Below, piece after piece: positions 1 to 45,952 of a DNA stretch of 45,952 bases. The notes below the pieces were generated by a model. That model had not been told where the DNA came from and searched no databases. It saw nothing but the letters and a program-made list of their open reading frames with translations. The stretch comes from a virus. Position 1 is the stretch's first letter; the number at the start of each line of letters is the position of its first letter. The stretch spans positions 1-45,952 of the IMG/VR virus record IMGVR_UViG_3300029319_000098; one strand, given 5' to 3'. The translations under genes were made by a program, and so were the position numbers.

Positions 1-948
1 AGTACACCTCACGCTATGTCTGAGTTTTATAGTTATGACCACGATTTAGCAGGTACATCTTGGAGTGTTGTAGATAACACTGGATTAGACTTACAAGAAT
101 TACCTGGTCAGACTGACGAATCTAATAAAGATGCACAGATGACTGTATCTAATGGTAGTGGTGGTACAAGTTTGTCTTTATCAACAACTGGTGGACCATT
201 TGGTACATTTACAATGGCTACATCTGATAGTGGAGACCCAGGTTTTAATGGTACAGGTAATAGTGGTACAGGATTTATAAGTGTATCATCATCAAATAGT
301 AATAGTTTATTTACTGGACATAATTCAGGTACAAGATTTATTAGAACTAGGTGGGCACACTCGCCTTCTAATAAAGACGGTACAGGAGCATATACATTGA
401 CACTGACTAATAATAGTGTTAGTGCAACTATTACAGGAGATATTAATTTTGCTGGTGGTCAATTTGGTTTTTGTATTTATGAAAACATACCAGTTAATTT
501 AAAAGAAGGAACTGCAAACATACACGAATTAAATATTGGTGATATGATTATGTCTTATAACTGGGAGACTGGACAAGAAGAAGAAGTTGAGATACTACAA
601 ATAGAAAAAAGATTACACGATAACTTGTATAAAATTATGTTATCAGACCCTAATGATGAAACAGAGGGAGAAGAATTAAAAGAATTAATACTTACACAAG
701 ACCACCCAGTATATAAACAAGACGGTACTATGGTATCTGATGACCCAGATAAAGCTAAAGATAATTATAATTTAGATTCAGCTGCTATACAACCTAATGA
801 TTTACTAAAAATATTAGACGGTAAGTATTATGCACAAGTACACAGATTAGAAGGATTTCCAAAGAAACATTGGACATATACAATATTAACAAGTAACAAG
901 AACTTTTATGCAAACGGTGTATTAGTTCACTCAGAAATAGGGGATTAA
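1..948 (+). CDS. Tail-associated protein with C-terminal Hint domain (5' partial)
   Basis: The frame is open to the left edge, and the first codons (STPHAMSEFYSY) align with the inside of the protein at 45,271, so the true start lies outside the window. Numbering from the first internal Met (nt 16), residues 1-150 match the paralogue's glycine/serine/threonine-rich beta domain, including TNNSVS near 131-136. A Hint (hedgehog/intein) domain follows: Cys153 opens block A and leads to NIGD at 173-176, block B reads LTQDHPVY at 226-233 (Thr227, His230), and the last block is NFYANGVLVHS at 296-306. Intein families splice through a C-terminal Asn and a Cys/Ser/Thr extein. Here the protein stops seven residues after VL with no Asn, so cleavage or transesterification at Cys153 is likelier than splicing. 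The role in the virion is inferred from context. Confidence 0.75.
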   Translation, partial: STPHAMSEFYSYDHDLAGTSWSVVDNTGLDLQELPGQTDESNKDAQMTVSNGSGGTSLSLSTTGGPFGTFTMATSDSGDPGFNGTGNSGTGFISVSSSNSNSLFTGHNSGTRFIRTRWAHSPSNKDGTGAYTLTLTNNSVSATITGDINFAGGQFGFCIYENIPVNLKEGTANIHELNIGDMIMSYNWETGQEEEVEILQIEKRLHDNLYKIMLSDPNDETEGEELKELILTQDHPVYKQDGTMVSDDPDKAKDNYNLDSAAIQPNDLLKILDGKYYAQVHRLEGFPKKHWTYTILTSNKNFYANGVLVHSEIGD

Positions 949-949
949 A

Positions 950-1057
950 ATGTACGGAAAAAGAAAAGGTATGGGTAGAAAACCTAAGAAAAAACGTAAT
1001 ATGAAAAAAACACGTCAAGGTAATGGACGTGGTACAAAGAAAAAGTATAGGAGATAA
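950..1057 (+). CDS. 35-residue lysine/arginine-rich protein
   Basis: A short ORF begins MYGKRKGMG and ends KKKYRR. More than half of its residues are Lys, Arg or Gly. It starts two bases after the stop of the Hint-domain gene and ends two bases before the next start. It belongs to a run of very small basic proteins between 0.9 and 2.7 kb on the same strand as the virion genes. A nucleic-acid-associated virion protein is a guess from charge; no domain is recognised. Confidence 0.6.
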   Translation: MYGKRKGMGRKPKKKRNMKKTRQGNGRGTKKKYRR

Positions 1058-1059
1058 TA

Positions 1060-1356
1060 ATGGACGTAGGTAAAGATACTAAATTTACACTATCTATTGA
1101 AACAGCTGTCAGTATACTTGTAACTGTGGGTATGATTATTGGTATGTGGTATTCATTACAAGCAGAAATAGAACTAGCTAAAGAATTACCAGAACCAGAG
1201 GTATCACGTATGGAGTATGACTTAAAAGACCAAATGATACGTGATTCTATATTAAACACAGAGGGTAAAGTAGATAAGCTTGAAGAAAAAGTAGATGATA
1301 TTAAAGAAGATACTAGAGCTATTACAGAAACTCTTATAGATATGAATAACAAATAA
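1060..1356 (+). CDS. Membrane protein with coiled coil, possible lysis-related
   Basis: The 98-residue protein has one transmembrane segment at about residues 15-33 (ETAVSILVTVGMIIGMW), then a charged heptad-like region at about 58-95 (KVDKLEEKVDDIKEDTRAI). A GGAG ribosome site lies seven bases before the ATG. A single membrane anchor followed by a coiled coil recalls phage holin/spanin accessory proteins, but no family is certain. Its stop codon overlaps the start of a second small membrane ORF. Confidence 0.7.
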   Translation: MDVGKDTKFTLSIETAVSILVTVGMIIGMWYSLQAEIELAKELPEPEVSRMEYDLKDQMIRDSILNTEGKVDKLEEKVDDIKEDTRAITETLIDMNNK

Positions 1357-1454
1357 TGAGGTTTACAGATGAACAACAGATTTATATCATACTTGGTATT
1401 AATGCTCTTCTCATCGCTATCTTGGCTGCACTCACAATCAGTCAACTTAACTAG
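1356..1454 (+). CDS. 32-residue single-span membrane peptide overlapping the next gene
   Basis: This ORF starts in a TAATG overlap with the previous stop. It encodes MRFTDEQQIYIILG followed by an uninterrupted hydrophobic stretch (INALLIAILAALTI), a good single membrane helix. It overlaps the first 86 bases of the thioredoxin-like gene at 1369 in another frame. The coupling and clean hydrophobic pattern favour a real gene, but it has no strong ribosome site and may be chance overlap with a signal-peptide-coding region. Confidence 0.45.
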   Translation: MRFTDEQQIYIILGINALLIAILAALTISQLN

Positions 1455-1752
1455 TTTTCAAGAAATACAAGCACTGAATATGCAAGAGTGCTCAGTAGTG
1501 CAAGTAAATGCTTCTTGGAATTTTAAAAATAGAGTAAAGATAGAAAAACTTGCTGACCTTTGTTACGTAGCAGAAATAGATTTAAGTAATAAAACTATAG
1601 GTGCTGTAGTACAGAAAGAGTGGGGTATTAAAGTAGTACCTACTATTATAATTCTTAAAGAAGGTAAAGAAGTTATGAGATATGAACCTGGTATTAGTAT
1701 GAGGTTTGATGAAAAAGAAGTATTTGATAAGATTAAGAAAGAAATCAGATGA
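1369..1752 (+). CDS. Exported thioredoxin-fold protein
   Basis: The 127-residue protein starts with a signal-peptide-like stretch (SYLVLMLFSSLSWLHS, about 7-22). The rest follows thioredoxin order: a VVQVNASWN strand-loop (about 43-51) where the CxxC site normally lies, then DLSNKTIGAVVQKEWGIKVVPTIIIL with the conserved cis-Pro in KVVPT, then KEGKEVMRYEPG. The CxxC redox pair is absent, so it is probably not a dithiol oxidoreductase. Two Cys at about 42 and 65 remain. GAGG precedes the ATG. It overlaps the 1356 ORF upstream and the 1749 ORF downstream (ATGA). Confidence 0.65.
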   Translation: MNNRFISYLVLMLFSSLSWLHSQSVNLTSFQEIQALNMQECSVVQVNASWNFKNRVKIEKLADLCYVAEIDLSNKTIGAVVQKEWGIKVVPTIIILKEGKEVMRYEPGISMRFDEKEVFDKIKKEIR

Positions 1753-1862
1753 TTAAAGTAACTAAATTATCTGGTAAGAGACGAAAGTATAATTTAAATG
1801 GCAAGAAAAAAAAGAAAAGCAAAAAGAAAAAGCTCAGGAAAAAAACCAAATCCTACAAATAA
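1749..1862 (+). CDS. 37-residue lysine-rich ORF nested with the next gene
   Basis: It starts in an ATGA overlap with the thioredoxin-like stop: MIKVTKLSGKRRKYNLNGK, then an almost pure Lys/Arg tail ending TKSYK. It shares 65 bases with the 1798 gene in another frame. The A-rich DNA is basic in both frames, so the overlap could be genuine dual coding or by-product. No ribosome site beyond a weak AAGAAA is visible. Confidence 0.4.
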   Translation: MIKVTKLSGKRRKYNLNGKKKKKSKKKKLRKKTKSYK

Positions 1863-1980
1863 AGCACTATACTCTAGAGTAAAAGCAGCAGCAAAAAGAA
1901 AGTTTAAGGTTTATCCTTCTGCTTATGCTAATGCTTGGTTGGTTCGTGAATATAAAAAACGTGGTGGTAGATATAGCTAA
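1798..1980 (+). CDS. Small basic phage protein (YPSAYANAW type)
   Basis: The 60-residue protein has a Lys/Arg-rich N-terminus (1-20) followed by a conserved-looking helical module: NKALYSRVKAAAKRKFKVYP, then SAYANAWLVREYKKRGGRY. From memory, the pattern of basic residues followed by YPSAYANAW recurs in small proteins of marine phages and environmental viral contigs; function is unknown. It ends in a TAATG overlap with the next gene, so the two are probably translationally coupled. Confidence 0.7.
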   Translation: MARKKRKAKRKSSGKKPNPTNKALYSRVKAAAKRKFKVYPSAYANAWLVREYKKRGGRYS

Positions 1981-2264
1981 TGGCTTACAAAGGTGGTTTA
2001 ACTAAGTGGTTTAAAGAAAACTGGGTAGACATTGGTGCACCTAAGAAAGGTGGAGGCTACAAAAAATGTGGTAGGTCTAAATTAAAAGCCGATAAAAAAA
2101 GAAAATACCCTAAGTGTGTACCAGCTGCAAAAGCTGCTCGTATGACTAAATCACAAATAAGAAGTGCAGTAAGTAGAAAGAGAGCAAGAGCACAGGGTGT
2201 AGGTGGTAAACCTACAAATGTAAAAACATTTGCTAAAAAAACTAATAATAAAAAGAGGAGATAA
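1980..2264 (+). CDS. Small basic protein with KCGR/KYPKCVPAAKA motif
   Basis: The 94-residue protein has an N-terminal GLTKWFKENWVDIGAPKKGG segment, then KKCGRSK, KYPKCVPAAKAARMT, and a basic tail. This motif order recurs, from memory, in small phage proteins of unknown function; I believe a DUF exists (DUF5872 comes to mind) but could not check it. The two Cys in similar contexts (about residues 30 and 46) could bind metal together. It is coupled by TAATG to the preceding gene. Confidence 0.72.
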   Translation: MAYKGGLTKWFKENWVDIGAPKKGGGYKKCGRSKLKADKKRKYPKCVPAAKAARMTKSQIRSAVSRKRARAQGVGGKPTNVKTFAKKTNNKKRR

Positions 2265-2267
2265 GTT

Positions 2268-2378
2268 ATGCCAAAACATACCAAAAGAAAGATGAAGAAG
2301 AAGAAAAACGGTTTAACTAAAAAGCAAAAGACTTTACCAAAGTTTTTACAAAAAGCAATATTAAAAAAGAAAAAGTAA
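2268..2378 (+). CDS. 36-residue lysine-rich peptide
   Basis: The ORF reads MPKHTKRKMKKKKNGL, continues with Lys-rich repeats and ends KKKK. An AAGAGGAG ribosome site precedes the ATG and the stop overlaps the next start (TAATG). It is another member of the basic micro-protein cluster; no function can be assigned. Confidence 0.55.
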   Translation: MPKHTKRKMKKKKNGLTKKQKTLPKFLQKAILKKKK

Positions 2379-2680
2379 TGCCAGTAAAAAGAAAAAGTAA
2401 AAGAGACCCAAGGTTAAAAAGAGCAGGTGTATCAGGTTATAATAAACCTAAACGTACACCTAATCACCCTAAAAAATCTCATATAGTTGTAGCAAAAGAG
2501 GGCAGTAAAATAAAGACTATAAGATTTGGGCAACAAGGAGCTAAGACTGCTGGTAAACCAAAAGCAGGAGAGTCTCGAAGAACTAAAATGAAACGTAAAA
2601 GTTTCAAAGCAAGACATAGAAGAAACATAGCTAAGGGTAAGATGAGTGCAGCTTACTGGGCTAATAAAGTTAAATGGTAA
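2378..2680 (+). CDS. Basic virion-associated protein (GYNKPKRTPNHP family)
   Basis: The 100-residue, strongly basic protein has a core reading SGYNKPKRTPNHPKKSH (about 19-35), then IKTIRFGQQGAKTAGKPKAG and a C-terminal KSFKARHRRNIAKGKMSAAY. The same GYNKPKRTP segment begins the truncated gene at the right edge (45,894), so the phage has two copies. From memory, similar KMSAAYWAN-ended proteins occur in marine phages. The genomic position among virion genes suggests a DNA-binding or structural role; that is inference. Confidence 0.72.
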   Translation: MPVKRKSKRDPRLKRAGVSGYNKPKRTPNHPKKSHIVVAKEGSKIKTIRFGQQGAKTAGKPKAGESRRTKMKRKSFKARHRRNIAKGKMSAAYWANKVKW

Positions 2681-2690
2681 GGAGAATAAA

Positions 2691-2843
2691 ATGAATATAG
2701 TAGTAAGTAAATTGTTAACAAGTTTGTTAAGTGAAAAAATTCTTAAGGCTGTGTTATTAAAACTTGGTGAATATTTCATTAAGAAATCAGAAAATAAACT
2801 AGATGATGAAATCTGGGCTGAAGTTAAAAAAGCATTAAAGTAA
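2691..2843 (+). CDS. 50-residue amphipathic protein
   Basis: I chose the ATG at 2691 because GGAG lies six bases upstream; an upstream in-frame start at 2646 lies inside the previous gene. The product (MNIVVSKLLTSLLSEKILKA, ending AEVKKALK) has a moderately hydrophobic N-terminal helix and an acidic/basic C-terminal helix. It might be a small membrane-active lysis peptide, but no family is recognised. Confidence 0.6.
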   Translation: MNIVVSKLLTSLLSEKILKAVLLKLGEYFIKKSENKLDDEIWAEVKKALK

Positions 2844-30342: not shown

Positions 30343-30520
30343 GTGTGTAAAGAACGCTAGGTTCGCAAACTTTATAAATTATTTCTTTGAAGGTGTTGTA
30401 GCAGAAGTAGAGCAAGATACATATATGGTTATTGATTGTCCTTGTTTTGCTATCTATGATGAAGATGATGAAATACTTGGAATATCAAAACAATTTGTAA
30501 AAGACCACGGAGACGCATAA
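30284..30520 (+). CDS. Cys-rich small protein between the terminase genes
   Basis: I choose the ATG at 30284 (MSKKSQSKLVNCLMCQKKTE) preceded by GGGTGGAG; the frame begins upstream at a GTG. It has CLMCQKKTEC and DCPCFAIYDED, giving five Cys that could form a zinc site. It overlaps the end of the small terminase gene by 59 bases and the start of the large terminase gene. Unknown function; possibly a packaging accessory. Confidence 0.6.
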   Translation: MSKKSQSKLVNCLMCQKKTECVKNARFANFINYFFEGVVAEVEQDTYMVIDCPCFAIYDEDDEILGISKQFVKDHGDA

Positions 30521-32076
30521 TGACAGTATCAGAAAAAGAACTATTACTACATAAAGCATCTAAAGATTTAATACTGTTTGGTAAATTATTTTTACCAAAT
30601 GATTTTTTACATAAATCTGAATCACCTCCCTTTCATTATGAGTTAGGTAAAAAATTAATTAGCACAAAACCTGGGGCACGTATTTGTAATGTGCTACCAA
30701 GAGGTTTTGGCAAATCTGTATTAATGAAAGCAGCCATAATGCACAAACTATGTTTTACTCCAAAAGACCAAGCACAGTTTATGGCGTGGGTTGCAGAAGA
30801 ACAAGGTCAGGCTATTGACCATTTAAAATATATACGTTCACATTTAGAAAACAATGATGCTATAAGATATTACTTTGGAAACTTATGTGGTGGTGATGAA
30901 AAACTACGTTGGACAGAAAAAGACTTAGTAACTACAAAAGGACATAGAATAATTGCAAAAGGTACATCACAAAGACTTAGAGGTCGTTCTGAAGTAGATT
31001 CTAGATATACTGGTATAATACTTGACGACTTTGAGTCAGAGTTAAATACAAAGACAGCAGATAGAAGAGATGAGATTAAACAATGGATTGTATCTACAGT
31101 ATACCCAGCATTAGAAGAATCACCAGGAAAAGAAGGTTGGATATGGTTGTCAGGTACTATTGTACACTATGACGCTTTCTTGCAAAACATACACGACGGT
31201 TACTTAGATTCACAAAAAGCTAGAAAGAAATATCCCTGGGACGTTACTTTTATTAGAGCTATTGAAAATGGTAAAGCAGTATGGAAAGAACAGTTTCCTT
31301 TAAAAAAGTTGGAACAAAAAAGACAAGAGTTTATTGAAGCAGGTAAGATAGATAAATTTGCACAAGAGTATCTAAATGATGCTAGAGATGTAGAAAGTGC
31401 AACATTTCAAATGGACAGACTACGTTATCATAGACACGAGTTTGTAAACAATAAAGGTTTTGCTTGTCTACGTAATGATACAGAAATCATACCAGTAAAT
31501 GTTTATATGGGAGTAGACTTAGCACATACAGCTACAAAATCATCTGACTATCAAGTTATTATGATTATGGGTATAGACGCAAATAAAAATAGATATGTAA
31601 TAGATTATTATCACGATAAGATACCAGCTTTTGATATGCCAGATAAAATATTAGAATATGCAAAAAAATATGCACCTATTAAAAGAGTTGCCGTAGAAAC
31701 AGTAGGTGCTCAAGAAATGGTACGTGATATGGTAGAACGTATGGCTGTAAGAGAAAAAAGATTATTACCTGGTATTAATAAAGGTGTAAGACCACCACAC
31801 GGTATTAAAAAAGAAGATAGATTAGAAATGACATTAGGTTCTATAGTAAATGGTAGAAAGTTATTGATAAGAAAAGAACACTCTGAATTAGTAGACGAGT
31901 TGTTTCAGTTTCCAAAAGGTAGACACGATGACTTGCTTGACGGATTGTATTATTCAGACTTCTATGCAAAACCACCCAGAACAAAAACTATGGAGATAGA
32001 TAACAACGAAAGACCTGATGATTTTATAACTAAAACAAGAAAACAAATAAATTGGGTGACAGGACTAAAAGTATGA
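30520..32076 (+). CDS. terL: Terminase large subunit
   Basis: The 518-residue protein is the packaging motor and nuclease. The ATPase has a Walker A-like LPRGFGKS at 59-66 and Walker B ILDDFE at 167-172. The nuclease has GVDLAH (Asp333), VAVET (Glu393) and GRHDDLLDGLYY (Asp470/471/474), a RNase H-like fold. The order and length fit the podoviral/P22-T7-like terminases. The start codon overlaps the preceding stop (TAATG), so the packaging proteins are made in coupled amounts. Confidence 0.95.
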   Translation: MTVSEKELLLHKASKDLILFGKLFLPNDFLHKSESPPFHYELGKKLISTKPGARICNVLPRGFGKSVLMKAAIMHKLCFTPKDQAQFMAWVAEEQGQAIDHLKYIRSHLENNDAIRYYFGNLCGGDEKLRWTEKDLVTTKGHRIIAKGTSQRLRGRSEVDSRYTGIILDDFESELNTKTADRRDEIKQWIVSTVYPALEESPGKEGWIWLSGTIVHYDAFLQNIHDGYLDSQKARKKYPWDVTFIRAIENGKAVWKEQFPLKKLEQKRQEFIEAGKIDKFAQEYLNDARDVESATFQMDRLRYHRHEFVNNKGFACLRNDTEIIPVNVYMGVDLAHTATKSSDYQVIMIMGIDANKNRYVIDYYHDKIPAFDMPDKILEYAKKYAPIKRVAVETVGAQEMVRDMVERMAVREKRLLPGINKGVRPPHGIKKEDRLEMTLGSIVNGRKLLIRKEHSELVDELFQFPKGRHDDLLDGLYYSDFYAKPPRTKTMEIDNNERPDDFITKTRKQINWVTGLKV

Positions 32077-32630
32077 GATTTCGAGTAATAAAAGGTGTTA
32101 ATTTTTTCAGGGGTATGTATAGTATAAAAGAATACATTGACTACTTAAAAAGGGTAGAGGGTTATGCGAACAAAGTAGGGGACAAGTTTTTTCCCTATGA
32201 TTCGCCTGAAGGTGGATTAAAAACTATAGGGTATGGATATAAAATTAAAACCCTTGAAGAACAAAACACTTTAGAAAAAACAGGATTATCTTCAACGGAA
32301 GTAGAAGAGATACTGCAAGAAGAGGCAGAAAAATCTTATCGAGGTGCTCAAAAATTTTGTGAGCAAAAAAATATAGATTGGGAAAGTATAGATATTAGAC
32401 TTCAATTTGCATTAGCAGACTATGTCTTTAATGTTGGTAGTCTAAGAAAATTTCCAACTACTGTTAAATGTTTAGCTGCAGGAGATGTTGAAGGTGCAGT
32501 AGCAGATGATAAAGGTAGACCAGGCTTTAAAGAATACGAAAGAGTTTACCGTGATAAAAACGGAGTAAGAAAACCATTAGGTAGAAACAAAGAGTTCTAC
32601 AAAGAGTTTTTAAAACCATATTTAGTTTAG
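32073..32630 (+). CDS. Endolysin, GH24 (T4-lysozyme-like)
   Basis: I choose the ATG at 32073, in an ATGA overlap with terminase and with AGGA upstream; the frame is open upstream to a TTG at 32052. The 185-residue protein has the GH24 triad: Glu29 in KRVEG, Asp43 in PYDSP and Thr51 in LKTIGYGYK. It cleaves peptidoglycan at the end of infection. No clear signal peptide or SAR anchor; a short basic/hydrophobic N-terminus precedes. It sits among packaging genes rather than next to a holin. Confidence 0.92.
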   Translation: MRFRVIKGVNFFRGMYSIKEYIDYLKRVEGYANKVGDKFFPYDSPEGGLKTIGYGYKIKTLEEQNTLEKTGLSSTEVEEILQEEAEKSYRGAQKFCEQKNIDWESIDIRLQFALADYVFNVGSLRKFPTTVKCLAAGDVEGAVADDKGRPGFKEYERVYRDKNGVRKPLGRNKEFYKEFLKPYLV

Positions 32631-32639
32631 GAGAACAAT

Positions 32640-32867
32640 ATGATGTATCAAGATAAAATGGGTTTATTTAAAAAAGGTAAAAAGAAACTAAAAAATAAAC
32701 TCAAAGAAATCAAAGGAAGATTCAATATAGATTATGCTAATCAACAAATAGATACTTTAAATAGACAACAAGGTACTAATGTAGATTTTTTAAGTAGAGA
32801 AACTATGCAACTACAAAAAGCTAAAAGAGACGCTAGAGCAAGAAGAAGAGATTTCCGTGGCAATTAG
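32640..32867 (+). CDS. Small basic protein upstream of portal
   Basis: The 75-residue product MMYQDKMGLFKKGKKKLKNK has basic ends and a Gln-rich helical middle (YANQQIDTLNRQQGTNVDFL). AGGAG precedes the ATG. It overlaps the portal start by 11 bases. Possibly a head-assembly accessory; no family recognised. Confidence 0.6.
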   Translation: MMYQDKMGLFKKGKKKLKNKLKEIKGRFNIDYANQQIDTLNRQQGTNVDFLSRETMQLQKAKRDARARRRDFRGN

Positions 32868-34857
32868 AGAAGACGACAAAGCAAGACTCAATAGAGAAAT
32901 ATTTAGAAAATACGCTGACGCAAGAAAAGACTGGGACGTAAATGCAAGAGAAGCTATAGACTTTACTCTTGGTAATCATTTTACTGCAGAAGAGTCAGAA
33001 GTATTACAATCAATAGGACAAGCAGATTTTACGATAGATAGAATATATGCAGCGATAGATAAGTTAAAATCTTTGATGACATCTAGACCTGTAAAGTATG
33101 GGATTACAGCACGAGAAGATTCTGATACCAAACTAGCAAATGTTTGGAAGACTCTTTTAGAGTATATATTCGATATATCAGACGGGCAGCATCATTTCAA
33201 ACAAGCAGTTCACGACTACGCAACTACAGGGTTAGGTTATTTTTATGCGTATATAGAACCAGAAGCTGACTATGGAAGAGGAGAAGTTAAGTTTACACAC
33301 TTAAATCCTTTTAGGGTATATGTAGACCCTGCATCTAGAGACAGATATTTTCAAGATGCTGCCAGTATAATTATGTCAACTATCTTAACACAAGAACAGT
33401 TGATTAATTTATATCCAGACGTACTACCTTTTCTTAAAGACATAGAAACATTTAGTCAACAAGATGTGTACGATGATTATCCTAATTCACAAAATAAAAA
33501 CACCAACACTGTATTTACTCCAGCTGAAGTAGATTCAAAAGATTATGATATATCTATTACAAGTAGATATAGAATACTTGAACGTTTTAGTAAAGTAAGA
33601 GTACCATTTTTTAGAGTTGCATCTATCAGAGACGACGCTGAACAAATAATGAGTGCAGAACAGTTTGGTGTTTTTATGGAACAAAATGAAAAAGAATTTA
33701 ATAATGGTATCTATCAATTTGTAGAAATACCTCAAACAAGAATTAAAGTAACAGCATCTATAGGACAAGTATTATTATACGAAACAATTTTAGATACTGA
33801 TATATATCCTATTATTCCAATACCAAATATTTGGACTAATACACCATATCCTAAATCAGATGTAAATAAAGTAAAAGATATGCAAAGACTTTTAAATAAA
33901 TTATTTAGTTTAGCTTTATCTCACGCACAAACAGCAGCTGGTTTAAAACTTATGATACCTCAAGGTAGTGTAGAAGATTTATCTCAAATAGAAAAAGATT
34001 GGGCTAATCCTAATGCTGTTATTGAATATGACCCAAGTTATGGTGAACCACATTTAGCTCAACCACAACCATTGTCTGGTGAGTTTTATGCTTTGATTAA
34101 TCAAGTAGAAAGATATATAGATTTAAATTTTGGAGTGCCAGAATTGTTACAAGGTTTTAAATCTGGTGCAGCAGATAGTGTACGTGGTACTATGTTATTA
34201 GCACAAATGGGTGAAGGTAGAGGTGCTAGTAAACTTAGAGATATAGAAATGTCACTACAACAATTAGGTAAAGTATTATATCAAATGTCAAAAGGACATT
34301 ATACTTTTGAGAAAAGTTTTAGAATTGTACAACCAAATAATGATATTACAGAGTTTACAATTAATAATCGTTTGTATGATGATAAGAAAAAAGAAATACT
34401 TACAATACAAAATGATATAACATCAGGACAATTTGATGTTAGAATTATGGCTGGTTCTACAATGCCTTCTAATAAATATGCAGAATATCAAATGTATATG
34501 GAAGCATATCAGTTAGGATTAATTGATAAAGTAGAAGCATTAAAGAAAACAGAAATATATGATAAAGAAGGTGTGCTTCAAAGAACAGGAGAAGTACAAA
34601 GACTTCAAAGTATTATTGGTCAATTACAAGACCAAATTAAAGAGCTTTCTGGCGATTTACAAACAGCACAAAGAGAGTCTGTATCTGATAGAAAACGTGT
34701 GGAAGTTGAGAAGTTCAAATCGAAACTTAACAAATCACAAGTAGGTGTAGATGCTCAGTTGAAAATAGACGCAGAAAAACAAAGACAAAAACAAAATCAA
34801 GAGGTGACGTCCTCGTTAGAGAACTTTCAGAACCCTGAAATAGTATTGGACGAATAG
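32857..34857 (+). CDS. Portal protein
   Basis: The 666-residue protein starts at GTG with AAGAAGAG upstream. It has the portal-type N-terminal region (EIFRKYADARKDWDVNAREA, then DRIYAAIDKLKSLMTSRPVK), a central HLNPFRVYVDPASRDRYFQD segment, and a helical C-terminus containing GAADSVRGTMLLAQMG and a coiled-coil-like LQDQIKELSGDLQTAQRESV. These match P22-like/T7-like portal architecture. The product forms the dodecameric ring for DNA passage and terminase docking. Confidence 0.85.
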   Translation: MAIREDDKARLNREIFRKYADARKDWDVNAREAIDFTLGNHFTAEESEVLQSIGQADFTIDRIYAAIDKLKSLMTSRPVKYGITAREDSDTKLANVWKTLLEYIFDISDGQHHFKQAVHDYATTGLGYFYAYIEPEADYGRGEVKFTHLNPFRVYVDPASRDRYFQDAASIIMSTILTQEQLINLYPDVLPFLKDIETFSQQDVYDDYPNSQNKNTNTVFTPAEVDSKDYDISITSRYRILERFSKVRVPFFRVASIRDDAEQIMSAEQFGVFMEQNEKEFNNGIYQFVEIPQTRIKVTASIGQVLLYETILDTDIYPIIPIPNIWTNTPYPKSDVNKVKDMQRLLNKLFSLALSHAQTAAGLKLMIPQGSVEDLSQIEKDWANPNAVIEYDPSYGEPHLAQPQPLSGEFYALINQVERYIDLNFGVPELLQGFKSGAADSVRGTMLLAQMGEGRGASKLRDIEMSLQQLGKVLYQMSKGHYTFEKSFRIVQPNNDITEFTINNRLYDDKKKEILTIQNDITSGQFDVRIMAGSTMPSNKYAEYQMYMEAYQLGLIDKVEALKKTEIYDKEGVLQRTGEVQRLQSIIGQLQDQIKELSGDLQTAQRESVSDRKRVEVEKFKSKLNKSQVGVDAQLKIDAEKQRQKQNQEVTSSLENFQNPEIVLDE

Positions 34858-34879
34858 GAACATCTCGGAGGAGTTAAAA

Positions 34880-35608
34880 ATGGCAGATGTGCAAGAAAAA
34901 ATACAAGAAGAAACTTTAGAAGGTTCTGAAACTTCTGAAAACAATACCTTAAGTGAGCCTGAAATCATAGAAGATTCGAGTTCTGACGCAGATGAAGTGC
35001 GTAAATTCCAGTCTATGTATGATAAAGCTCAGGCTGAGTTAGGCAAATTAAGACCAGTAGCAAAGCTATTTCAGGATAATCCTGAGTTGGTTGACGTTGT
35101 TAGAAACCACTTAACAGGGGGTAAAGGACAAGATAAAGAACAAATACAAGTTAAATCAGAGGATTTTAATCCTTGGGACGCATATACAAATCCACAGTCT
35201 GAATCATATAAAATGAGACAGCAAGAGATTGATAGTGCAGTAGACGACAAAATGAAAGCATATATGGGAAGATTAGAACAACAGAGACAACAAGATACCT
35301 TGAAGTTTCAAGTTCAAAATGATTATAAATTAAGTAATCAAGAAGCTTCCGAGTTTGTAGATTTTGTTACTAGACCTAAAGAGACACTTCCTCTAGATAC
35401 TTTATTTAAGGTGTGGAGAGGTGATACTCCTGAAAGCAAAAGCTCACAAAACATTGACAGCGTTAGAAAGGCTCAGGATAAACCTAAGTCTGCTGGTTTA
35501 ATCCAAGGAGGACAACCAGAAAGACCTAAAGCTGATGATGATTTATGGGGTAGAATTATGCGTGCAGGTAACACTTCTAGCATCGGAAGTAATATTAAAA
35601 AACAATAA
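34880..35608 (+). CDS. Capsid scaffolding protein
   Basis: The 242-residue protein has an acidic, disordered N-terminus (EEETLEGSETSENNTLSEPE), a helix-rich middle (KFQSMYDKAQAELGKLRPVA), and a short basic end. It lies between portal and capsid genes, with CGGAGGAG upstream, the classic podoviral position and character of a scaffold. It would be lost from the mature head. Confidence 0.82.
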   Translation: MADVQEKIQEETLEGSETSENNTLSEPEIIEDSSSDADEVRKFQSMYDKAQAELGKLRPVAKLFQDNPELVDVVRNHLTGGKGQDKEQIQVKSEDFNPWDAYTNPQSESYKMRQQEIDSAVDDKMKAYMGRLEQQRQQDTLKFQVQNDYKLSNQEASEFVDFVTRPKETLPLDTLFKVWRGDTPESKSSQNIDSVRKAQDKPKSAGLIQGGQPERPKADDDLWGRIMRAGNTSSIGSNIKKQ

Positions 35609-35630
35609 AATTCTTTAGGAGGAATTTAAA

Positions 35631-37025
35631 ATGGCAATTACAAAAGGCACAATGAACGCTATACCTGTAGCTAATGAATCATTAGGTTCATTTAATACAG
35701 CTGTAACTGCTGCTGACTATGGACAAAGACCAGACCAAAGACGTAGATATAATTTTGGTGACAGAATCGCTGAATTAGCACCAGAAGAATCACCGTTTTT
35801 CGTTTATCTTAGTCAAACTGCTAAGCTTCCTACTGATGATAGTTTGTTTCGTTATCTTGAAGATAGAACAAAAATCGACTACACCAGTAGAGAGTTCCAA
35901 GTAAAATCAGACTTCGGTGGAGTATCAAGCTTAACAGCTGGTACTACTTTTACTATGGAAGTAGAGACATTAGACAGTACAGCAGCATCAGTTGACTTTT
36001 TAGTTAAAGGTATGGTACTTGCAGTTAAAACTGCAGCAGCATACGGAAACGCAATCTTAAGAGTAGAAGACGCACCAGCAGACCACGGTGCACACAGTTC
36101 TTTTACAGCTAAAGTAATTAGTGTTTCTGCAGCATCAGGTTCAGACGCAGTAGCAGCAGAAGACAGATGTCAAATTATTGGCTCTGCTTATGCAGAAGGT
36201 ACTGGTTCACCTGACGTATTTTCAGACAGCTTTGATGACAACTATGGGTATACCCAGATTTTCAAAACAGCAGCTGAAATTACAAATACAGCTATGGCTA
36301 CAAATATGAGAGGCGTAGCTAATGAGTTTGAAAGAGTATTAGCACAGAAAATGAGAGAACATAAAATCGACATTGAAAGAGCTATGCTTTTTGGACAAAA
36401 AGCTAGAGTTGGTGGTATTCAATACACAGAAGGTCTAGTTGGACATATTATTAAAAACAGTACATTTGTAGACGCAGGAGCAAGTGCTCCTTCAAATGCT
36501 TTATCTTATGAATCAGGTAAAGCGTATGCTAAAACATACACTACAGGTGAACTTACTTATGACAACTTGCTTTCTGACTTTGAAGTTCTATTCGACCCTG
36601 CAAGAGGTGGAAGTAATGAAAGATTAGCATTAGCTTCTCTTCCTGTTATTTCATACTTCAATAAAATGGGTGGTACTTCTTTCTCAGAAAACAGCACAAA
36701 TGGTTCACAGTACAGATTAAATATGGACGAATTAGCAGGTAGCTTCGGACATAAATTAATGGAAATTGATACTGTGCACGGTTCTGTTTACTTAGTGAAA
36801 GAGCCTCTATTTAGAGGTCACTCATCTGGATTAATGTTAATGGCAGATATGAGCAAATTATACTACAGACCATTAGTTGGTAATGGTATGAATAGAGATA
36901 CTGAGGTTATCGAAAATGTACAAGGTGCAGACGAAGACCTACGTAAGGATATGATTATTACCGAAGCTGGTCTTGAAGTATGCTTACCAGAGTCTCATTA
37001 TCTAATTAATTTAGAAGGAGTATAA
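35631..37025 (+). CDS. Major capsid protein
   Basis: The 464-residue protein has a strong AGGAGGA site. It opens GTMNAIPVANESLGSFNTAV with RIAELAPEESPFFVYLSQTA, has long E-loop-like and P-domain segments, and a C-terminal LLFRGHSSGLMLMADMSKLYY-type strand pattern ending SHYLINLEG. Position after the scaffold, size and abundant codons support the major capsid protein; it is probably HK97-fold but this was not tested. Highest-expression ribosome site in the region. Confidence 0.88.
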   Translation: MAITKGTMNAIPVANESLGSFNTAVTAADYGQRPDQRRRYNFGDRIAELAPEESPFFVYLSQTAKLPTDDSLFRYLEDRTKIDYTSREFQVKSDFGGVSSLTAGTTFTMEVETLDSTAASVDFLVKGMVLAVKTAAAYGNAILRVEDAPADHGAHSSFTAKVISVSAASGSDAVAAEDRCQIIGSAYAEGTGSPDVFSDSFDDNYGYTQIFKTAAEITNTAMATNMRGVANEFERVLAQKMREHKIDIERAMLFGQKARVGGIQYTEGLVGHIIKNSTFVDAGASAPSNALSYESGKAYAKTYTTGELTYDNLLSDFEVLFDPARGGSNERLALASLPVISYFNKMGGTSFSENSTNGSQYRLNMDELAGSFGHKLMEIDTVHGSVYLVKEPLFRGHSSGLMLMADMSKLYYRPLVGNGMNRDTEVIENVQGADEDLRKDMIITEAGLEVCLPESHYLINLEGV

Positions 37026-39631: not shown

Positions 39632-42600
39632 ATGGCAACGTTAACAAGTAGAAAAGTATCAGATACATATAAAGATTTATTACAAGTATCAAATAGTAAC
39701 AGTGGAATCACAGGGAGTTTAACAAATGTTGAAGACGGAGAGGGTACAGCTAGTGTATTACAACTTAGTACAGGTGCTGTTAATATTACAGGAGCAGGTA
39801 CATTACAGTATGCTGGTACTGCTATTACTGCTACAGCAGCTGAGATAAATGTATTAGACGGATATACTGGTAGTGTTACAGAACTAAACTACCTAGATAC
39901 ATTACACGCTACAGGCGTAACTGCTACTGAGTTTGATTACTTAGACGGAGTTACATCAAATATACAAACACAATTAGATACTAAAATTGAAGCTACATTA
40001 ACGACTGAACAAGTTCAAGATATAGTTGGTGCTATGTTTACTGGTAATACAGAGACTAGAATATCAGTTTCATATGAAGACAGTGACGGAACTATAGATT
40101 TAGTAGTAGACGATATGACAGCTCACCCAAGTATATCAGCAGCTAGTTCTTCTAATAACAGTGGCAGAACATATATACAAGATATAACATTAGATTCTAA
40201 CGGTCACGTAACTGGAATAGCTACAGCAACAGAAACAGTGACTGATACAAATTTAACCACCGAAGAAGTACAAGACATAGTAGGAGCTATGTTTACTTCA
40301 AACACAGAAACACGTATTGCTGTTGAATACCAAGACGGTGACGGTACTATTGACTTAGTGGTTGACGATATGACAGCAGACACTAATACATTTAGAACTG
40401 TAACTGCAGGTGGTAATACTTTAGGTGCTACAGAAACATTAGCTTTTACAGAGGGCTCAAACATAACTATAAGTGAATCTGGTGGTGCTGTTACGATAGC
40501 AGCTACAGATACTAACACACAACTATCTACCGAAGAAGTACAAGATATTGCTGGACCTCTTGTTGCAACTGGAGGTACAAAGACTGGTATTACAGTTACT
40601 TATGATGATGCTAACAACAATATGGACTTTGTTGTTGACCACGATGCTGCTTCTAATTTTGTAGCTAATGAACACGTAGACCACACATCAGTAAGTATTT
40701 CTACAGGAACTGGATTATCTGGTGGAGGAGATATTAGTTCAACAAGAACTTTAAGTGTAGATGCAGCACAGACAGGCATAACTTCTGTAGTAAATAGTGG
40801 TTTAGAAATAGGTCGTGATGCTGATAATAGAATTAAGTTTGGTACAGATAATCAAATAATTTTTGAAGTAGACGGTGGAGATAATGTAATATTTAAAACT
40901 AGTGGAGAAATAGAAGCTAGCTCTCTAGACATATCTGGAGATGCAGACATAGACGGAACACTAGAGGCAGACGCTATTACTGTTGGTGGTACTGCATTGA
41001 ATACAGTTATAGCAGGAGTTACAGTATCAAATGCAACATTAGCTGCTACAGCTACAGTATCAGACAGCACAGCAAACACAAACTTTCCAGTTGTATTTCA
41101 CGATGAATCAAATGGTTTGTTAGATGATACAGGAGCATTAAGATATAATCCAAGTACAGGAACATTATTAGCTCCTAATTTAGTTGTGGCTGGTACAACT
41201 ACAACTGTAGATACAGTAACTATGGAAGCATCAAATGCTATTGTATTTGAAGGAGCTACTGCAGATGCAAATGAAACAACATTGTCTATTGTAGACCCTA
41301 CTGGTGATAGAACAATAAATTTACCAGATGTATCAGGTACTATACCAGTATTAGCAGCAGCATCTACTACACAAATTTCAGCTACACCAGAAGAATTAAA
41401 TATACTAGACGGTGCAACTGTCGTAGTAGGAGAGATTAATGCTTTAGACTTAGGCTCTACAGCAGTTGGTAATGCTATTGCTTCTAAAGCTGTTGTACTA
41501 GATTCTAATAAAGATTATACAGGTATAAGAAACTTAACTATTACAGGAGAATTAGACGCAGCTAGTTTAGATATATCAGGAGATGTTGATGTAGACGGCA
41601 CTCTAGAAGCTGATGCTATCACTGTAAACGGAACTGCTTTACCAGTTGTAAGTAGAATTATAGCTATAGACCACACTACTGATTCTTTAACAGTTCCAGT
41701 TACTGGCACAGATAAATTTATATTTGTAGATGCTGATGACAGTAACAATCTTAAAATTGGTCTTATACCTTCAGCATTAACTAGTGAGCAAGTTCAAGAT
41801 ATAGTTGGTGCGATGTTCACAACCACTAATACTGAAACTGGTATTACAGCAACATATCAAGATAGTACAGGAGATATAGATTTAGTTGTAGGAACTTTAA
41901 ATCAAGACACTACTGGTAATGCAGCAACTGCTACAGCTTTAGAAACAGCAAGAAATATTGGTGGAGTTTCTTTTGACGGTACTGGTAATATTAATTTACC
42001 TGGTGTAAATACTTCAGGTAACCAAGATACTAGTGGTACTGCAGCTAACGCAACACACGTAACTGTTACTGACAATGAAAGTACAAATGAAGATAATTTA
42101 ATACCATTTATAGAAAATGCTTCTGCTACAGGTAATGTTGGTCTTGAATCAGACGGTGACCTACATTACAACCCTAGCACAGGTACAGTTACAGCTACAA
42201 TATTCAAAGGTAATATTGATGCTGTAGACGGAGATTTTGACGGCACACTTGAAACAGATGCTTTGACTATTGGTGGAGTTACATCAAACGCATTTACAAC
42301 TACACTTAAAAATAAACTTGACGGAATAGAAGCTAGTGCTACAGCAGACCAGACAGATGCAGAAATAAGAGCAGCAGTAGAAGCAGCTAGTGATTCAAAC
42401 GTATTTACAGATGCAGACCATACTAAATTAAACGGTATAGCTTCTAATGCTACTGCTAATGCTGGTACAGTGACATCTGTAACAGCTGGTGACGGTATGA
42501 CACAAAGTGGAACTAGTTCTGTAAATCCTACTTTAGATGTAGTTGGTGGAACTGGTATTACTGCAAATGCTAATGATATTGCAATAACTGCTGCACAAAC

Positions 42601-45274
42601 TGGTATTACTTCTATACTTAATACATCTTTAGTTGTGGGTAGAGACGGTGATAATCAAATAAAGTTTGGAACTGACAATCAGATTATATTTGAAGTTAGT
42701 GGTGGAGACAATGTTATCTTCAAAGCAAGTGGTGAGATTGAGGCATCAAGTTTAGATATTAGTGGAGATGTTGATGTAGACGGAACTTTGGAGGCAGATG
42801 CTATTACAGTAAATGGTACATCACTACCTAATGTAAGTCAAATATTAGCTACTGATGTGACTACAGATTCTTTGACTGTTCCAGCTAGTGGTGACAAAGT
42901 AATCTTGATTGATGCTGATGACAATGATAGTCTTAAAGTAGCAAACTTCCCAAGTGATACAGTAAGAACAGTTACTGCTGGTGGTAATACCTTAGCTGAT
43001 AATGAAACGCTAGCATTTACTGCTGGGTCTAATATTACTATCTCTGAATCAGGAGGAGCTGTAACTATAGCAGCTACTGATACAAACACTCAGCTTTCAA
43101 ATGAACAAGTACAAGATATTGTTGGAGCTATGTTTGATTCGAATACTGAAACAAGAATAACAGCTTCATACCAAGACAGCGACGGAACGATAGATTTGGT
43201 TGTAGATAATGATTTATCTAACTACGATAACAGTAGTTCAGGATTTTTAACTGCACACCCTAACATATCAGCAGCTTCAACATCTAACAATAGTGGTAGA
43301 ACTTATATACAAGACATTACTCTAGATAGTAATGGTCACGTAACTGGTATTGCAACTGCTACAGAAAGTGTAACAGATACTAATACAAACCAACTAACAA
43401 CTTTTACTCTTACAGCAGATAGTGGTAGTAATCAAACAATAGCACACGGAAACACTTTAGATATTGCAGGTGGTACTGGAATATCAACTTCAGTTGGTGC
43501 TACAGATACAGTTACTGTAACTTTGGGTAATCATAGTGCAGATTTATTAACATCTGGTACTGTTGATGCTGCAAGATTACCAACTATTGATATTTCATCT
43601 AAGACTAACCTAAGTGCTGGAACAAACATTTCTCTCAGTGGAGATACTTTAAATGTTGATGATGCTTTCTTAAAAAATGATGCTGATGATACTACAAGTG
43701 GTACTATAACTGCTGGTGGATTTACAACAACTGGTACTGTTACAGCAGGAGCTTCTAATAATAACATTAGATTAAGAACAGTAAGTAATGCTTCTAATAT
43801 AGCAGATACTTTTTCTGGCAACACAGACCAATCATACATTGATTTTCAAATAAACAATAGTAGTAATGACCCTGGTTACATTATGCACGAAACTAGAAGT
43901 GGTGAAGCAAATGAGGGAGTAATCCACATTTGTCCGTCAGACGATAATGCAGACGGAGATTATGTTTCTATACACGGAACAAATGATGCTGATAGTTTAA
44001 AACTACATACATCTGGTAAAATAGAAGGTGTTTCAACATTAGTAGCTGCAGATTTAGATATTAGTGGAGATGTAGATGTAGACGGTACATTAGAAACTGA
44101 TGCTCTAACTATTAATGGAAGTGCAACATTACCATTTTCATCAGATGATAGAGTTAAGTTAGACGGTATAGCTACTAGTGCTACTGCTAACACAGGAACT
44201 GTAGATACAAGTGGTAGTCCTGTAGACAATGACTTTGCTAAATTTACTGATTCTAATACTATTGAGGGTAGAAGTGTATCTGAAGTAAGAAGTGATTTAG
44301 GTTTAGGTGATTTAGCATTAGCAGATGATATTGCTGCAAGTAAAATAGTTAGTGGTACTATTGCAGATGCTAGAATAGCTGCATCAAGTATTACACAACA
44401 TACAGACTCAAAATATTTAAGAAGCGATGCTGCAGATACAGCATCGGGGGCAATAACATTTACAGCAAGAACTACTTTTGATGATAGTGGAGCTGACGGT
44501 GTTTTATTTAAAGCATCAGATAATGCAAGTAATTCTTCAAGAGCATTTTTTGACGGAACTTCTACTTCTTGTATATTCCAAGAGGGTAATGATTTAAGTT
44601 TTAGAAGTGGAGCTACTACTGGTAGTTCAAGTGGTACTGAAAGATTTTTTATTAATTCAAGTGGTCCACAAGTTCCAACTGGCTCACAACTTTATGTAGA
44701 TGATATATATGGACAAAGTAATGGAACAAATAGATTAGTATTAGATGATGACACAAATTCTGAAAATGCAAATGGTGTATCATTAACTGGTGTAAATCAT
44801 ATTTATTTATGTCCAGATGAAACAAACAACGGTACTGGAGAAGTAAGAGTTATCACTGGTACTGATAATGATTTAGATAGTGGCACAGCAGATGCAGTTG
44901 CAAAAATTACAAATGCTGGAGAAGCACATTTCAAAGGAGATGTTGTAGCATTTAGTAGTTCTCCGTCTGACAGAGAACTAAAAGAAAACATTTCTACGAT
45001 AGAAAATGGACTTGATAAAGTAATGAAATTAAGAGGTGTTGAGTTTGACTGGACTGCTACATCAAGAAAAGGACAACACGATATTGGATTAATTGCACAA
45101 GAAGTTGAAGAAGTATTACCAGAAGTAGTTTCTGTTAAAACTTTAAGAGTTGGAGAGTTTGGGCGTGACGGAGATGAAAAAGACTTTAAAACAGTAAACT
45201 ATGAAAAAATGGTTGGTGTATTAGTAGAAGCTGTAAAAGAACTTAAAGCAGAAATAGAGGAATTAAAAAAATGA
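39632..45274 (+). CDS. Giant tail fibre with S74 intramolecular chaperone
   Basis: The 1,880-residue protein is dominated by repeated beta units. VQDIVGAMF recurs at least four times (near nt 40,014, 40,269, 41,796 and 43,110, with a variant near 40,540), and LDISGDVDVDGTLEAD recurs five times with variation. The last 102 residues (from Ser1779: SDRELKENIS, DIGLIAQEVEEVLPE, VNYEKMVGVLVEAVKEL) are a Peptidase_S74 domain, which folds the fibre trimer and then cleaves itself off at its N-terminal Ser-Asp. It is the likely host-recognition fibre. Confidence 0.9.
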   Translation: MATLTSRKVSDTYKDLLQVSNSNSGITGSLTNVEDGEGTASVLQLSTGAVNITGAGTLQYAGTAITATAAEINVLDGYTGSVTELNYLDTLHATGVTATEFDYLDGVTSNIQTQLDTKIEATLTTEQVQDIVGAMFTGNTETRISVSYEDSDGTIDLVVDDMTAHPSISAASSSNNSGRTYIQDITLDSNGHVTGIATATETVTDTNLTTEEVQDIVGAMFTSNTETRIAVEYQDGDGTIDLVVDDMTADTNTFRTVTAGGNTLGATETLAFTEGSNITISESGGAVTIAATDTNTQLSTEEVQDIAGPLVATGGTKTGITVTYDDANNNMDFVVDHDAASNFVANEHVDHTSVSISTGTGLSGGGDISSTRTLSVDAAQTGITSVVNSGLEIGRDADNRIKFGTDNQIIFEVDGGDNVIFKTSGEIEASSLDISGDADIDGTLEADAITVGGTALNTVIAGVTVSNATLAATATVSDSTANTNFPVVFHDESNGLLDDTGALRYNPSTGTLLAPNLVVAGTTTTVDTVTMEASNAIVFEGATADANETTLSIVDPTGDRTINLPDVSGTIPVLAAASTTQISATPEELNILDGATVVVGEINALDLGSTAVGNAIASKAVVLDSNKDYTGIRNLTITGELDAASLDISGDVDVDGTLEADAITVNGTALPVVSRIIAIDHTTDSLTVPVTGTDKFIFVDADDSNNLKIGLIPSALTSEQVQDIVGAMFTTTNTETGITATYQDSTGDIDLVVGTLNQDTTGNAATATALETARNIGGVSFDGTGNINLPGVNTSGNQDTSGTAANATHVTVTDNESTNEDNLIPFIENASATGNVGLESDGDLHYNPSTGTVTATIFKGNIDAVDGDFDGTLETDALTIGGVTSNAFTTTLKNKLDGIEASATADQTDAEIRAAVEAASDSNVFTDADHTKLNGIASNATANAGTVTSVTAGDGMTQSGTSSVNPTLDVVGGTGITANANDIAITAAQTGITSILNTSLVVGRDGDNQIKFGTDNQIIFEVSGGDNVIFKASGEIEASSLDISGDVDVDGTLEADAITVNGTSLPNVSQILATDVTTDSLTVPASGDKVILIDADDNDSLKVANFPSDTVRTVTAGGNTLADNETLAFTAGSNITISESGGAVTIAATDTNTQLSNEQVQDIVGAMFDSNTETRITASYQDSDGTIDLVVDNDLSNYDNSSSGFLTAHPNISAASTSNNSGRTYIQDITLDSNGHVTGIATATESVTDTNTNQLTTFTLTADSGSNQTIAHGNTLDIAGGTGISTSVGATDTVTVTLGNHSADLLTSGTVDAARLPTIDISSKTNLSAGTNISLSGDTLNVDDAFLKNDADDTTSGTITAGGFTTTGTVTAGASNNNIRLRTVSNASNIADTFSGNTDQSYIDFQINNSSNDPGYIMHETRSGEANEGVIHICPSDDNADGDYVSIHGTNDADSLKLHTSGKIEGVSTLVAADLDISGDVDVDGTLETDALTINGSATLPFSSDDRVKLDGIATSATANTGTVDTSGSPVDNDFAKFTDSNTIEGRSVSEVRSDLGLGDLALADDIAASKIVSGTIADARIAASSITQHTDSKYLRSDAADTASGAITFTARTTFDDSGADGVLFKASDNASNSSRAFFDGTSTSCIFQEGNDLSFRSGATTGSSSGTERFFINSSGPQVPTGSQLYVDDIYGQSNGTNRLVLDDDTNSENANGVSLTGVNHIYLCPDETNNGTGEVRVITGTDNDLDSGTADAVAKITNAGEAHFKGDVVAFSSSPSDRELKENISTIENGLDKVMKLRGVEFDWTATSRKGQHDIGLIAQEVEEVLPEVVSVKTLRVGEFGRDGDEKDFKTVNYEKMVGVLVEAVKELKAEIEELKK

Positions 45275-45894
45275 CTTTGACTTCATCAGGACAAATTAGC
45301 ATTAGTGATATAAATGGAGAGTTTGGCAGAAGTGGTACAACTGCAAATAGTTCATTAGAAGATTTATCTGATGGTACTGTTGCAACTATAAATACTGCAA
45401 ATGATGCAGATGATCGTCCAGACGGCTCTGCTCCTCACTCTATGAGTGAATTTTATAGTTATAATCATAGTGCTGCAAGTACATCTTGGAGTAATGTTCC
45501 AGCAGACTTTAACTTACACGCAACTGCAACCTCTGGTGTAGATTCTGTTACTTCTTCTGCAAAGACTATTACTCTATCTAATGGTAGTGGTACTACAAGT
45601 GTAAATTGTCAGCAACCTAGTAATGGTAATATTGAGTTGAAAGTCGCTGTTTCTACAAGTGGAGATCCAGGAACAAGTGGTACTGCAAATAGTGGTACTG
45701 GCTTTGGTAATAATGCACCAAGTATATCTTTTACATCTGGAACTTTATATTTGAGATTTAAGCTAATAGAAGTAAAAGCTAATTCTGGAAATCTAAGTGC
45801 AGAGAATAGAACTATTACTTTTACAAACAATAGTGTAAGTAATACAGACTTGCAGATTAATTGTAAAGTTGAAGCTGGAGGACTATTCCCATAA
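45271..45894 (+). CDS. Tail-associated protein, paralogue of the left-edge gene without Hint
   Basis: The 207-residue protein starts in an ATGA overlap with the fibre. It opens LTSSGQISISDINGEFGRSG, a start typical of marine phage tail proteins, then SMSEFYSYNHSAASTSWS, which matches the left-edge gene. It ends KVEAGGLFP at the point where the left-edge protein continues into its Hint domain. Role: probably fibre-tip or tail-associated; not enzymatic. Confidence 0.72.
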   Translation: MTLTSSGQISISDINGEFGRSGTTANSSLEDLSDGTVATINTANDADDRPDGSAPHSMSEFYSYNHSAASTSWSNVPADFNLHATATSGVDSVTSSAKTITLSNGSGTTSVNCQQPSNGNIELKVAVSTSGDPGTSGTANSGTGFGNNAPSISFTSGTLYLRFKLIEVKANSGNLSAENRTITFTNNSVSNTDLQINCKVEAGGLFP

Positions 45895-45952
45895 TGGCTA
45901 TTACTTACAGAGGAATAAGATTTGCAGGTTATAATAAACCTAAGAGAACACC
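45894..45952 (+). CDS. Basic GYNKPKRTP protein, 3' truncated by window end
   Basis: The ATG at 45894 overlaps the previous stop (TAATG). The readable 19 residues are MAITYRGIRFAGYNKPKRT, matching the 2378 product at GYNKPKRTP. The rest lies outside the window. Confidence 0.65.
   Translation, partial: MAITYRGIRFAGYNKPKRT

What the first reader, a model, noticed from the sequence alone, without database searches (positions are those of the whole stretch)
1..948. Hint domain appended exactly at the end of a tail-protein domain
The left-edge protein and the 45,271 protein share the N-terminal domain through TNNSVS and AGG; one then stops, the other goes on into Cys153 and a Hint domain (LTQDHPVY, NFYANGVLVHS). 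The domain boundary is sharp. The C-terminal Asn and +1 nucleophile needed for splicing are missing, which points to a cleaving, BIL- or hedgehog-like variant on a virion protein, perhaps for maturation or covalent attachment.
Basis: partly seen in the sequence, partly recalled or inferred. Interest (0 to 1): 0.8.

Follow-up and report, generated by a model that had tools for sequence, protein, structure and literature searches.

The report
Self-cleaving Hint domain on phage tail protein
Many uncultured marine phages carry, at the end of one protein encoded next to the tail fibre, an intein-like (Hint) domain that kept the parts needed to cut itself off but lost the parts needed to splice, so it probably trims, or possibly attaches, that virion protein; nobody has yet tested this in the laboratory.

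Summary
Window 1-948 (5' end cut by the contig edge) ends in a Hint domain starting at Cys153 (base 472), right after a Gly-rich linker where a homologous protein (45271-45894) stops. The AlphaFold model (pLDDT 89) matches the Tetrahymena BIL2 intein-like domain (Z 21.0), NrdJ-1, CthBIL and hedgehog. In relatives from IMG/VR, Cys1, Thr B:7 and His B:10 (step 1) are invariant; the terminal Asn and F-block His (C-terminal cleavage) are gone, and an invariant Ser-Glu pair stands just before the stop. Hint dN/dS is 0.12, against 0.29 for the rest. Cutting before Cys1 would leave ends (GGF, GGL) like the natural ends of Hint-less homologues (GL*, GF*, GFP*). The gene occupies one slot behind the S74 tail fibre, filled by Hint-less, Hint or S74-ending alleles, with four gains or losses on the tree and one Hint scar (93/94 nt). 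Most likely: N-terminal self-cleavage maturing a virion-associated protein; BIL2-like covalent transfer is not excluded. It works like a BIL but is not shown to be one. New variant of a known kind. In passing: the animal AXH domain (ataxin-1, HBP1) looks homologous to this Hint family.

The parts
1..948 (+). Virion-associated (tail-region) protein with C-terminal Hint domain; 5' end (about 52 codons) lost at the contig edge
   Evidence: complete homologue L003 5845-6948
1..447 (+). N-terminal part: conserved module (..PHAMSEFYSYDHD..) and predicted beta domain, homologous to the Hint-less protein
448..471 (+). Gly-rich linker FAGGQFGF ending in Phe, the predicted cleavage-site -1 residue
472..945 (+). 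Hint domain (158 aa)
472..474 (+).
694..705 (+).
901..930 (+). Block F/G end NFYANGVLVH; the usual F-block His before NF is Lys here (Asn/Asp/Lys/Ser/Glu/Trp in relatives)
931..936 (+). Invariant Ser-Glu at the place of the intein's terminal Asn/+1 residue; only Ile-Gly-Asp and the stop follow
45271..45894 (+). Hint-less homologue, ends EAGGLFP*; probably the other allele of the same gene slot
39632..45274 (+). Upstream tail fibre with C-terminal Peptidase_S74 (intramolecular chaperone) domain; precedes this slot in relatives
1060..1356 (+). Downstream 98-aa protein with a hydrophobic stretch, conserved neighbour of the slot
1369..1752 (+). Downstream 127-aa protein, conserved neighbour of the slot

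Best explanation
The Hint domain is a C-terminal, self-removing autoprocessing domain. After folding, Cys1 attacks the Phe(-1) carbonyl (N-to-S acyl shift aided by Thr B:7 and His B:10), and the thioester is then resolved, most simply by water, releasing the Hint. The mature virion-associated protein ends in a short Gly-rich tail, ...AGGQFGF. With no Asn cyclisation and no C-extein, splicing cannot occur. In this gene slot it plays a part comparable to the S74 self-cleaving chaperone domain that ends other alleles. Shown: fold, invariant step-1 residues, loss of step-3 residues, purifying selection, modular gain and loss, matching C-termini. Inferred: the cleavage itself, hydrolysis as its outcome, presence in the virion, and the purpose (maturation or folding).
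For: Fold: Hint model pLDDT 88.9, pTM 0.84; Z 21.0 to Tetrahymena BIL2, 17.4 NrdJ-1, 17.1 CthBIL, 15.4 hedgehog, with Cys on intein residue 1. Profile E 4e-10 to BIL2 and NrdJ-1. Invariant C1, T75, D77, H78 down to 27% identity; chance that C1, T75 and H78 all fall among 17 invariant of 158 positions is 0.001. Asn absent in 68/68, Ser-Glu in 68/68, Cys in all 64 with the junction present. Median dN/dS 0.12 for Hint against 0.29 for the rest. -1 residue Phe 37, Leu 17; Gly-rich ends in 50/54 (background 20%); Hint-less natural ends FP* 13/29, GL* 5/29, GF* 1. S74 domains at the same C-terminal place in L111, L120, L126, L102. Type B BILs without intein-like block G do cleave (PMC4031507).
Against: No biochemical or virion data. 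The F:4 position is Thr, not the Asp usual in class 1 inteins, so step 1 may be tuned differently. The matching C-termini could merely mark where the Hint joined. Invariant Ser-Glu is not needed for simple hydrolysis and asks for another role. Hint-less phages do without it, so cleavage is not essential to the protein's basic function.
Confidence: 0.55

Rival explanations
1. Transfer instead of hydrolysis: the Cys1 thioester of the N-terminal domain is taken by an amine or other nucleophile (a lysine of another virion or cell-surface protein), attaching the protein covalently by its Gly-rich tail, as hedgehog does to cholesterol and BIL2 to lysine.
For: The closest structure by a clear margin is BIL2 (Z 21.0 and 23.0), reported to join ubl4 to lysine by an isopeptide bond (PMC8616854). 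The linker is flexible and Gly-rich. Very Lys/Arg-rich small proteins are encoded next door.
Against: Nothing after the Hint to bind an acceptor; no partner gene seen only beside Hint alleles in the neighbourhoods listed; Hint-less alleles serve the same slot.
Confidence: 0.2
2. Inactive relic kept as a structural or folding domain (e.g. a C-terminal cap), with no bond cleavage.
For: No activity shown; Asp F:4, His F:13 and Asn are replaced; Hint is absent in several lineages.
Against: Cys, Thr and His of the active site are invariant across 27-100% identity, -1 is Phe or Leu (Ala in L066), and the Hint is under strong purifying selection.
Confidence: 0.15
3. Acyl transfer inside the domain: the N-terminal domain moves from Cys1 to the invariant Ser154, giving a lasting branched ester because Asn cyclisation is missing.
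For: Ser154-Glu155 invariant in 68/68 although the preceding His is not; the profile aligns them with the SEI C-extein of NrdJ-1, leaving only the Asn as a gap (native exteins NPC/SEI in PMC13123727).
Against: Structure alignment places Ser at the Asn position, not at +1. Esters are labile and reversible; branched intermediates tend to decay to cleavage products (PMC4031507).
Confidence: 0.07
4. An ordinary splicing intein.
For: Hint fold and blocks A, B, F.
Against: No terminal Asn or Gln and no C-extein: only 1-14 residues after Ser-Glu in every relative.
Confidence: 0.01

Closest known systems
BIL2 intein-like domain, Tetrahymena BUBL1 locus (PDB 6Y75, 6TMM)
   Same: Closest fold (Z 21.0, 147 aa, 1.9 A, 23% id) and profile hit (E 4e-10); acts on the domain N-terminal to it
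   Different: BIL2 has a C-terminal Asn (N143) and a C-flanking ubl domain; here Ser-Glu and stop, on a phage protein
Bacterial intein-like (BIL) domains, types A and B (CthBIL, PDB 2LWY)
   Same: Hint fold (Z 17.1), Cys1 and TxxH kept, no +1 splicing arrangement; type B cleaves without intein-like block G
   Different: Clear F/G-block end NFYAxGVLVH is kept, then Ser-Glu instead of His-Asn; carried by marine phages; no C-flank
NrdJ-1 split intein (PDB 8UBS), from a marine metagenome
   Same: Z 17.4; ending NFFANDILVH[N]SEI against NFYANGVLVH-SEI
   Different: NrdJ-1 is split and splices, using Asn and Ser+1; here Asn is missing and there is no C-extein
Hedgehog Hog/Hint autoprocessing domain (PDB 1AT0)
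   Same: C-terminal Hint that cuts off the preceding domain by a Cys thioester, no Asn step
   Different: No sterol-recognition region follows; Z 15.4
S74 intramolecular chaperone domain (Pfam PF13884)
   Same: C-terminal autoprocessing domain in the same position of the same phage protein family (L111, L120, L126, L102)
   Different: Unrelated fold and chemistry (Ser-Lys autoproteolysis, general knowledge)
AXH domain of ataxin-1 and HBP1 (PF08517)
   Same: L066's Hint matches AXH over its whole length, 60.5 bits, E 2.8e-16
   Different: AXH is an animal binding domain without the final F/G hairpin or intact catalytic set

Membership tests
Hint (hedgehog/intein) superfamily | Hint fold | tested here: met
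   Model pLDDT 88.9; Z 21.0 to 13 against dozens of inteins, BILs, hedgehog
Hint (hedgehog/intein) superfamily | Block A Cys/Ser and block B TxxH | tested here: met
   C1, T75, H78 invariant
Splicing intein | C-terminal Asn (or Gln) and +1 Cys/Ser/Thr of a C-extein | tested here: not met
   No Asn/Gln at the end in 68/68; no C-extein
BIL type A | C-terminal His-Asn | tested here: not met
   His/Asn/Ser followed by Ser-Glu
BIL type B | No similarity to intein block G | tested here: inconclusive
   LVH is kept but Asn lost; no BIL-B profile was available to compare
BIL type B | Cleaves without splicing | not testable with these tools
   Needs expression
Hedgehog Hog domain | Sterol-recognition region after Hint | tested here: not met
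   Stop codon 1-14 residues after Ser-Glu
BIL2-like protein-conjugating domain | Isopeptide transfer of the upstream domain to Lys | not testable with these tools
   Structural similarity only
Phage tail protein | Virion or tail localisation | not testable with these tools
   Inferred from gene order after the S74 fibre and from S74-ending relatives

The most novel reading that the evidence does not exclude
The Hint domain covalently fixes the phage protein to another virion protein (or to its own Ser154), so that a marine phage uses an ATP-free, intein-derived conjugation reaction in virion assembly, like BIL2's ubiquitin dispensing.
Probability: 0.2. Interest if true: 0.8.

Novelty: new variant of a known kind. 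Interest (0 to 1): 0.55.

Why it matters
It would show intein chemistry domesticated as a maturation or attachment device for a phage structural protein, in a gene slot that also uses the unrelated S74 self-cleaving domain. It gives a clean natural family in which the N-cleavage residues are conserved and the C-cleavage residues lost, useful for Hint mechanism and as an N-cleaving or thioester-forming tag. Isolates are lacking, but the reaction can be tested in E. coli at once.

Tried and rejected
Splicing intein: rejected (no Asn, no C-extein). Chance Hint-like letters: rejected (profile E 4e-10, structure Z 21). Tandem duplicate genes in this phage: not excluded, but less likely than two alleles at the contig ends, since none of 20 related records has more than one such gene. 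Isolated phages: tblastn found no relative of the Hint part, of the Hint-less protein or of L103; L066 found only inteins and other Hint-like stretches of other phages. Cellular genomes: one distant match, L211, not followed. Defence-system profiles: none. NCBIfam: none. A wider search for L066-like Hints found only itself. A genome-wide AXH search could not be started. The AXH fold did not appear among the rows shown of the structure searches; this does not exclude it.

Full report
What is there. The left-edge ORF (1-948, 315 aa, open at the 5' end) and the right-edge ORF (45271-45894, 207 aa) are homologous in their N-terminal part (43% over 144 residues, E 1.2e-20). The right-hand protein stops after ...EAGGLFP. 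The left one continues from ...FAGGQFGF into Cys (base 472) and a 158-residue domain. The real start is outside the window: L003, 98% identical, gives the whole 367-aa protein.

It is a Hint domain. With the single window sequence, Pfam gives only sub-threshold matches (PT-HINT 0.016, Hint 0.14, Intein_splicing 0.18). With a profile of 22 relatives the best solved matches are BIL2 of Tetrahymena (3.9e-10), NrdJ-1 (4.2e-10), gp41-1 (3e-6) and the Clostridium BIL (7e-6). One relative passes the PT-HINT cut-off (L202, 27.8 bits against 27.7). AlphaFold predicts it well (pLDDT 88.9, pTM 0.84). The model matches BIL2 with Z 21.0 over 147 residues at 1.9 A, then mini-inteins, NrdJ-1 (17.4), CthBIL (17.1) and hedgehog (15.4). 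Model residue 9 (Cys) lies on intein residue 1, and model residue 162 (Ser) on the terminal Asn place. Z to BIL2 is 23.0 with the full-length model.

Active site. In 22 sequences down to 27% identity, C1, D24, E38, H49, T75, D77, H78, P79, P92, Y99, T135, Y136, T140, A147, L151, S154 and E155 are invariant. That includes the step-1 set Cys A:1, Thr B:7, His B:10. In 68 distinct C-terminal sequences the end is always x-Ser-Glu (His 64, Asn 2, Ser 2 before it), never Asn, with the stop 1-14 residues later. Cys is present in all 64 that include the junction (block B was part of the selection there, so its invariance rests). The F-block His before NF is Asn, Asp, Lys, Ser, Glu or Trp, and F:4 is mostly Thr. 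Roles of these residues follow PMC4031507. So the N-terminal reaction centre is kept and the C-terminal one is lost. Selection agrees: median dN/dS 0.12 in the Hint against 0.29 in the N-terminal part, over 12 pairs.

The junction. In 54 distinct Hint proteins the residue before Cys is Phe (37) or Leu (17), and the last seven residues are Gly-rich in 50 of 54 (20% of other 7-mers). Hint-less homologues end by nature in FP (13 of 29), GL (5), GF (1) and similar. Cleavage before Cys1 would therefore give an end like that of the Hint-less proteins.

The gene slot. In relatives the order is S74 tail fibre, often an about 80-aa gene, this protein, 98-aa protein, 127-aa protein. Each of 20 related records has at most one gene of this kind and at most one Hint. 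L082, 96% identical to the right-edge protein, shows that the Hint-less allele also leads into the 98-aa gene. So the window's two copies are best read as two alleles at contig ends. Other alleles end in S74 domains (L111, L120, L126, L102). L202 and its relatives carry a Hint on an N-terminus without the usual domain, in the same slot; the same Hint in L201 is 86% identical to that of L038. On the tree of the N-terminal part the Hint label needs four changes, three forced by well-supported branches, and L028 (Hint) is sister to L059 (none). L063 is a fossil: behind a Hint-less gene lie 94 bp, 93 of them identical to the 3' end of L042's Hint gene and its downstream sequence. This is best read as replacement by recombination.

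How it likely works. Cys1 forms a thioester with Phe(-1). Without Asn cyclisation or C-extein, the thioester must be resolved by water (my best explanation), by another nucleophile (as hedgehog and BIL2 do; PMC8616854), or by the invariant Ser. The last point is odd: the ending VH-SEI equals NrdJ-1's VH[N]-SEI with the Asn missing (exteins NPC/SEI in PMC13123727). Sequence alignment thus suggests loss of Asn before a kept +1 Ser, while structure alignment puts Ser at the Asn place. Either the domain descends from an intein at that ribonucleotide-reductase site, or the likeness is chance; not settled.

Known or new. Hint domains in phage enzymes are known as inteins, for example in terminases (PMC3556154, PMC5259590), and the viral structure library holds many Hint-bearing phage proteins, few with a stated function. 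I found no paper on a C-terminal cleaving Hint on a phage structural protein in the library searched, which lacks most subscription journals. It is filed as a new variant of Hint/BIL-like autoprocessing, not as a member of BIL type A (feature not met) or B (not decidable).

Side finding. L066's Hint matches Pfam AXH (ataxin-1/HBP1) with 60.5 bits, E 2.8e-16, cut-off 33, and 16 of 25 members match at E 0.01 or better. PDB searches with L066 list HBP1 and ataxin-1 AXH (7e-6 to 2e-5) above CthBIL; HBP1 shows CFLKGT and DHPFYV at the Cys1 and block B places. Without L066 in the profile ataxin-1 is at E 0.01. No paper in the library holds both terms. AXH may be a decayed Hint domain; this deserves its own study.

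Noticed in passing
L066:3206-3631 and relatives in alignment A3: Pfam AXH (ataxin-1/HBP1 module) matches this phage Hint family, L066 at E 2.8e-16 over the whole AXH model; HBP1 keeps Cys and DHP at the Hint active-site places. The animal AXH domain may descend from a Hint domain.
   Followed up: partly
L063:5363-5457: Remnant of a Hint gene's 3' end behind a Hint-less allele, 93/94 nt identical to L042: scar of allele replacement.
   Followed up: yes
window 1-948 and 45271-45952: Both contig ends lie in the same variable gene slot with different alleles; many related 44-50 kb records also end near this gene, suggesting assembly breaks at a hypervariable locus.
   Followed up: partly
window 948-2843: Cluster of very small Lys/Arg-rich proteins next to the Hint gene, also in relatives, of unknown role.
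   Followed up: no
L202:3410-3646, L063:4504-4743: About 80-aa protein (M[AS]K.I....VEIKHT.) encoded between the S74 fibre and the Hint protein in many relatives, absent from the window; possible assembly chaperone.
   Followed up: no
window 30520-37025: Terminase-like, P22-type portal and SU10-type capsid genes; the nearest named phage by portal is Thalassomonas phage BA3 at 22% identity, so the group has no close isolate.
   Followed up: no
C-terminus VHSEI, window 925-939: Same letters as the C-extein SEI of the marine NrdJ-1 intein with the Asn missing; possible origin from an intein of ribonucleotide reductase.
   Followed up: partly
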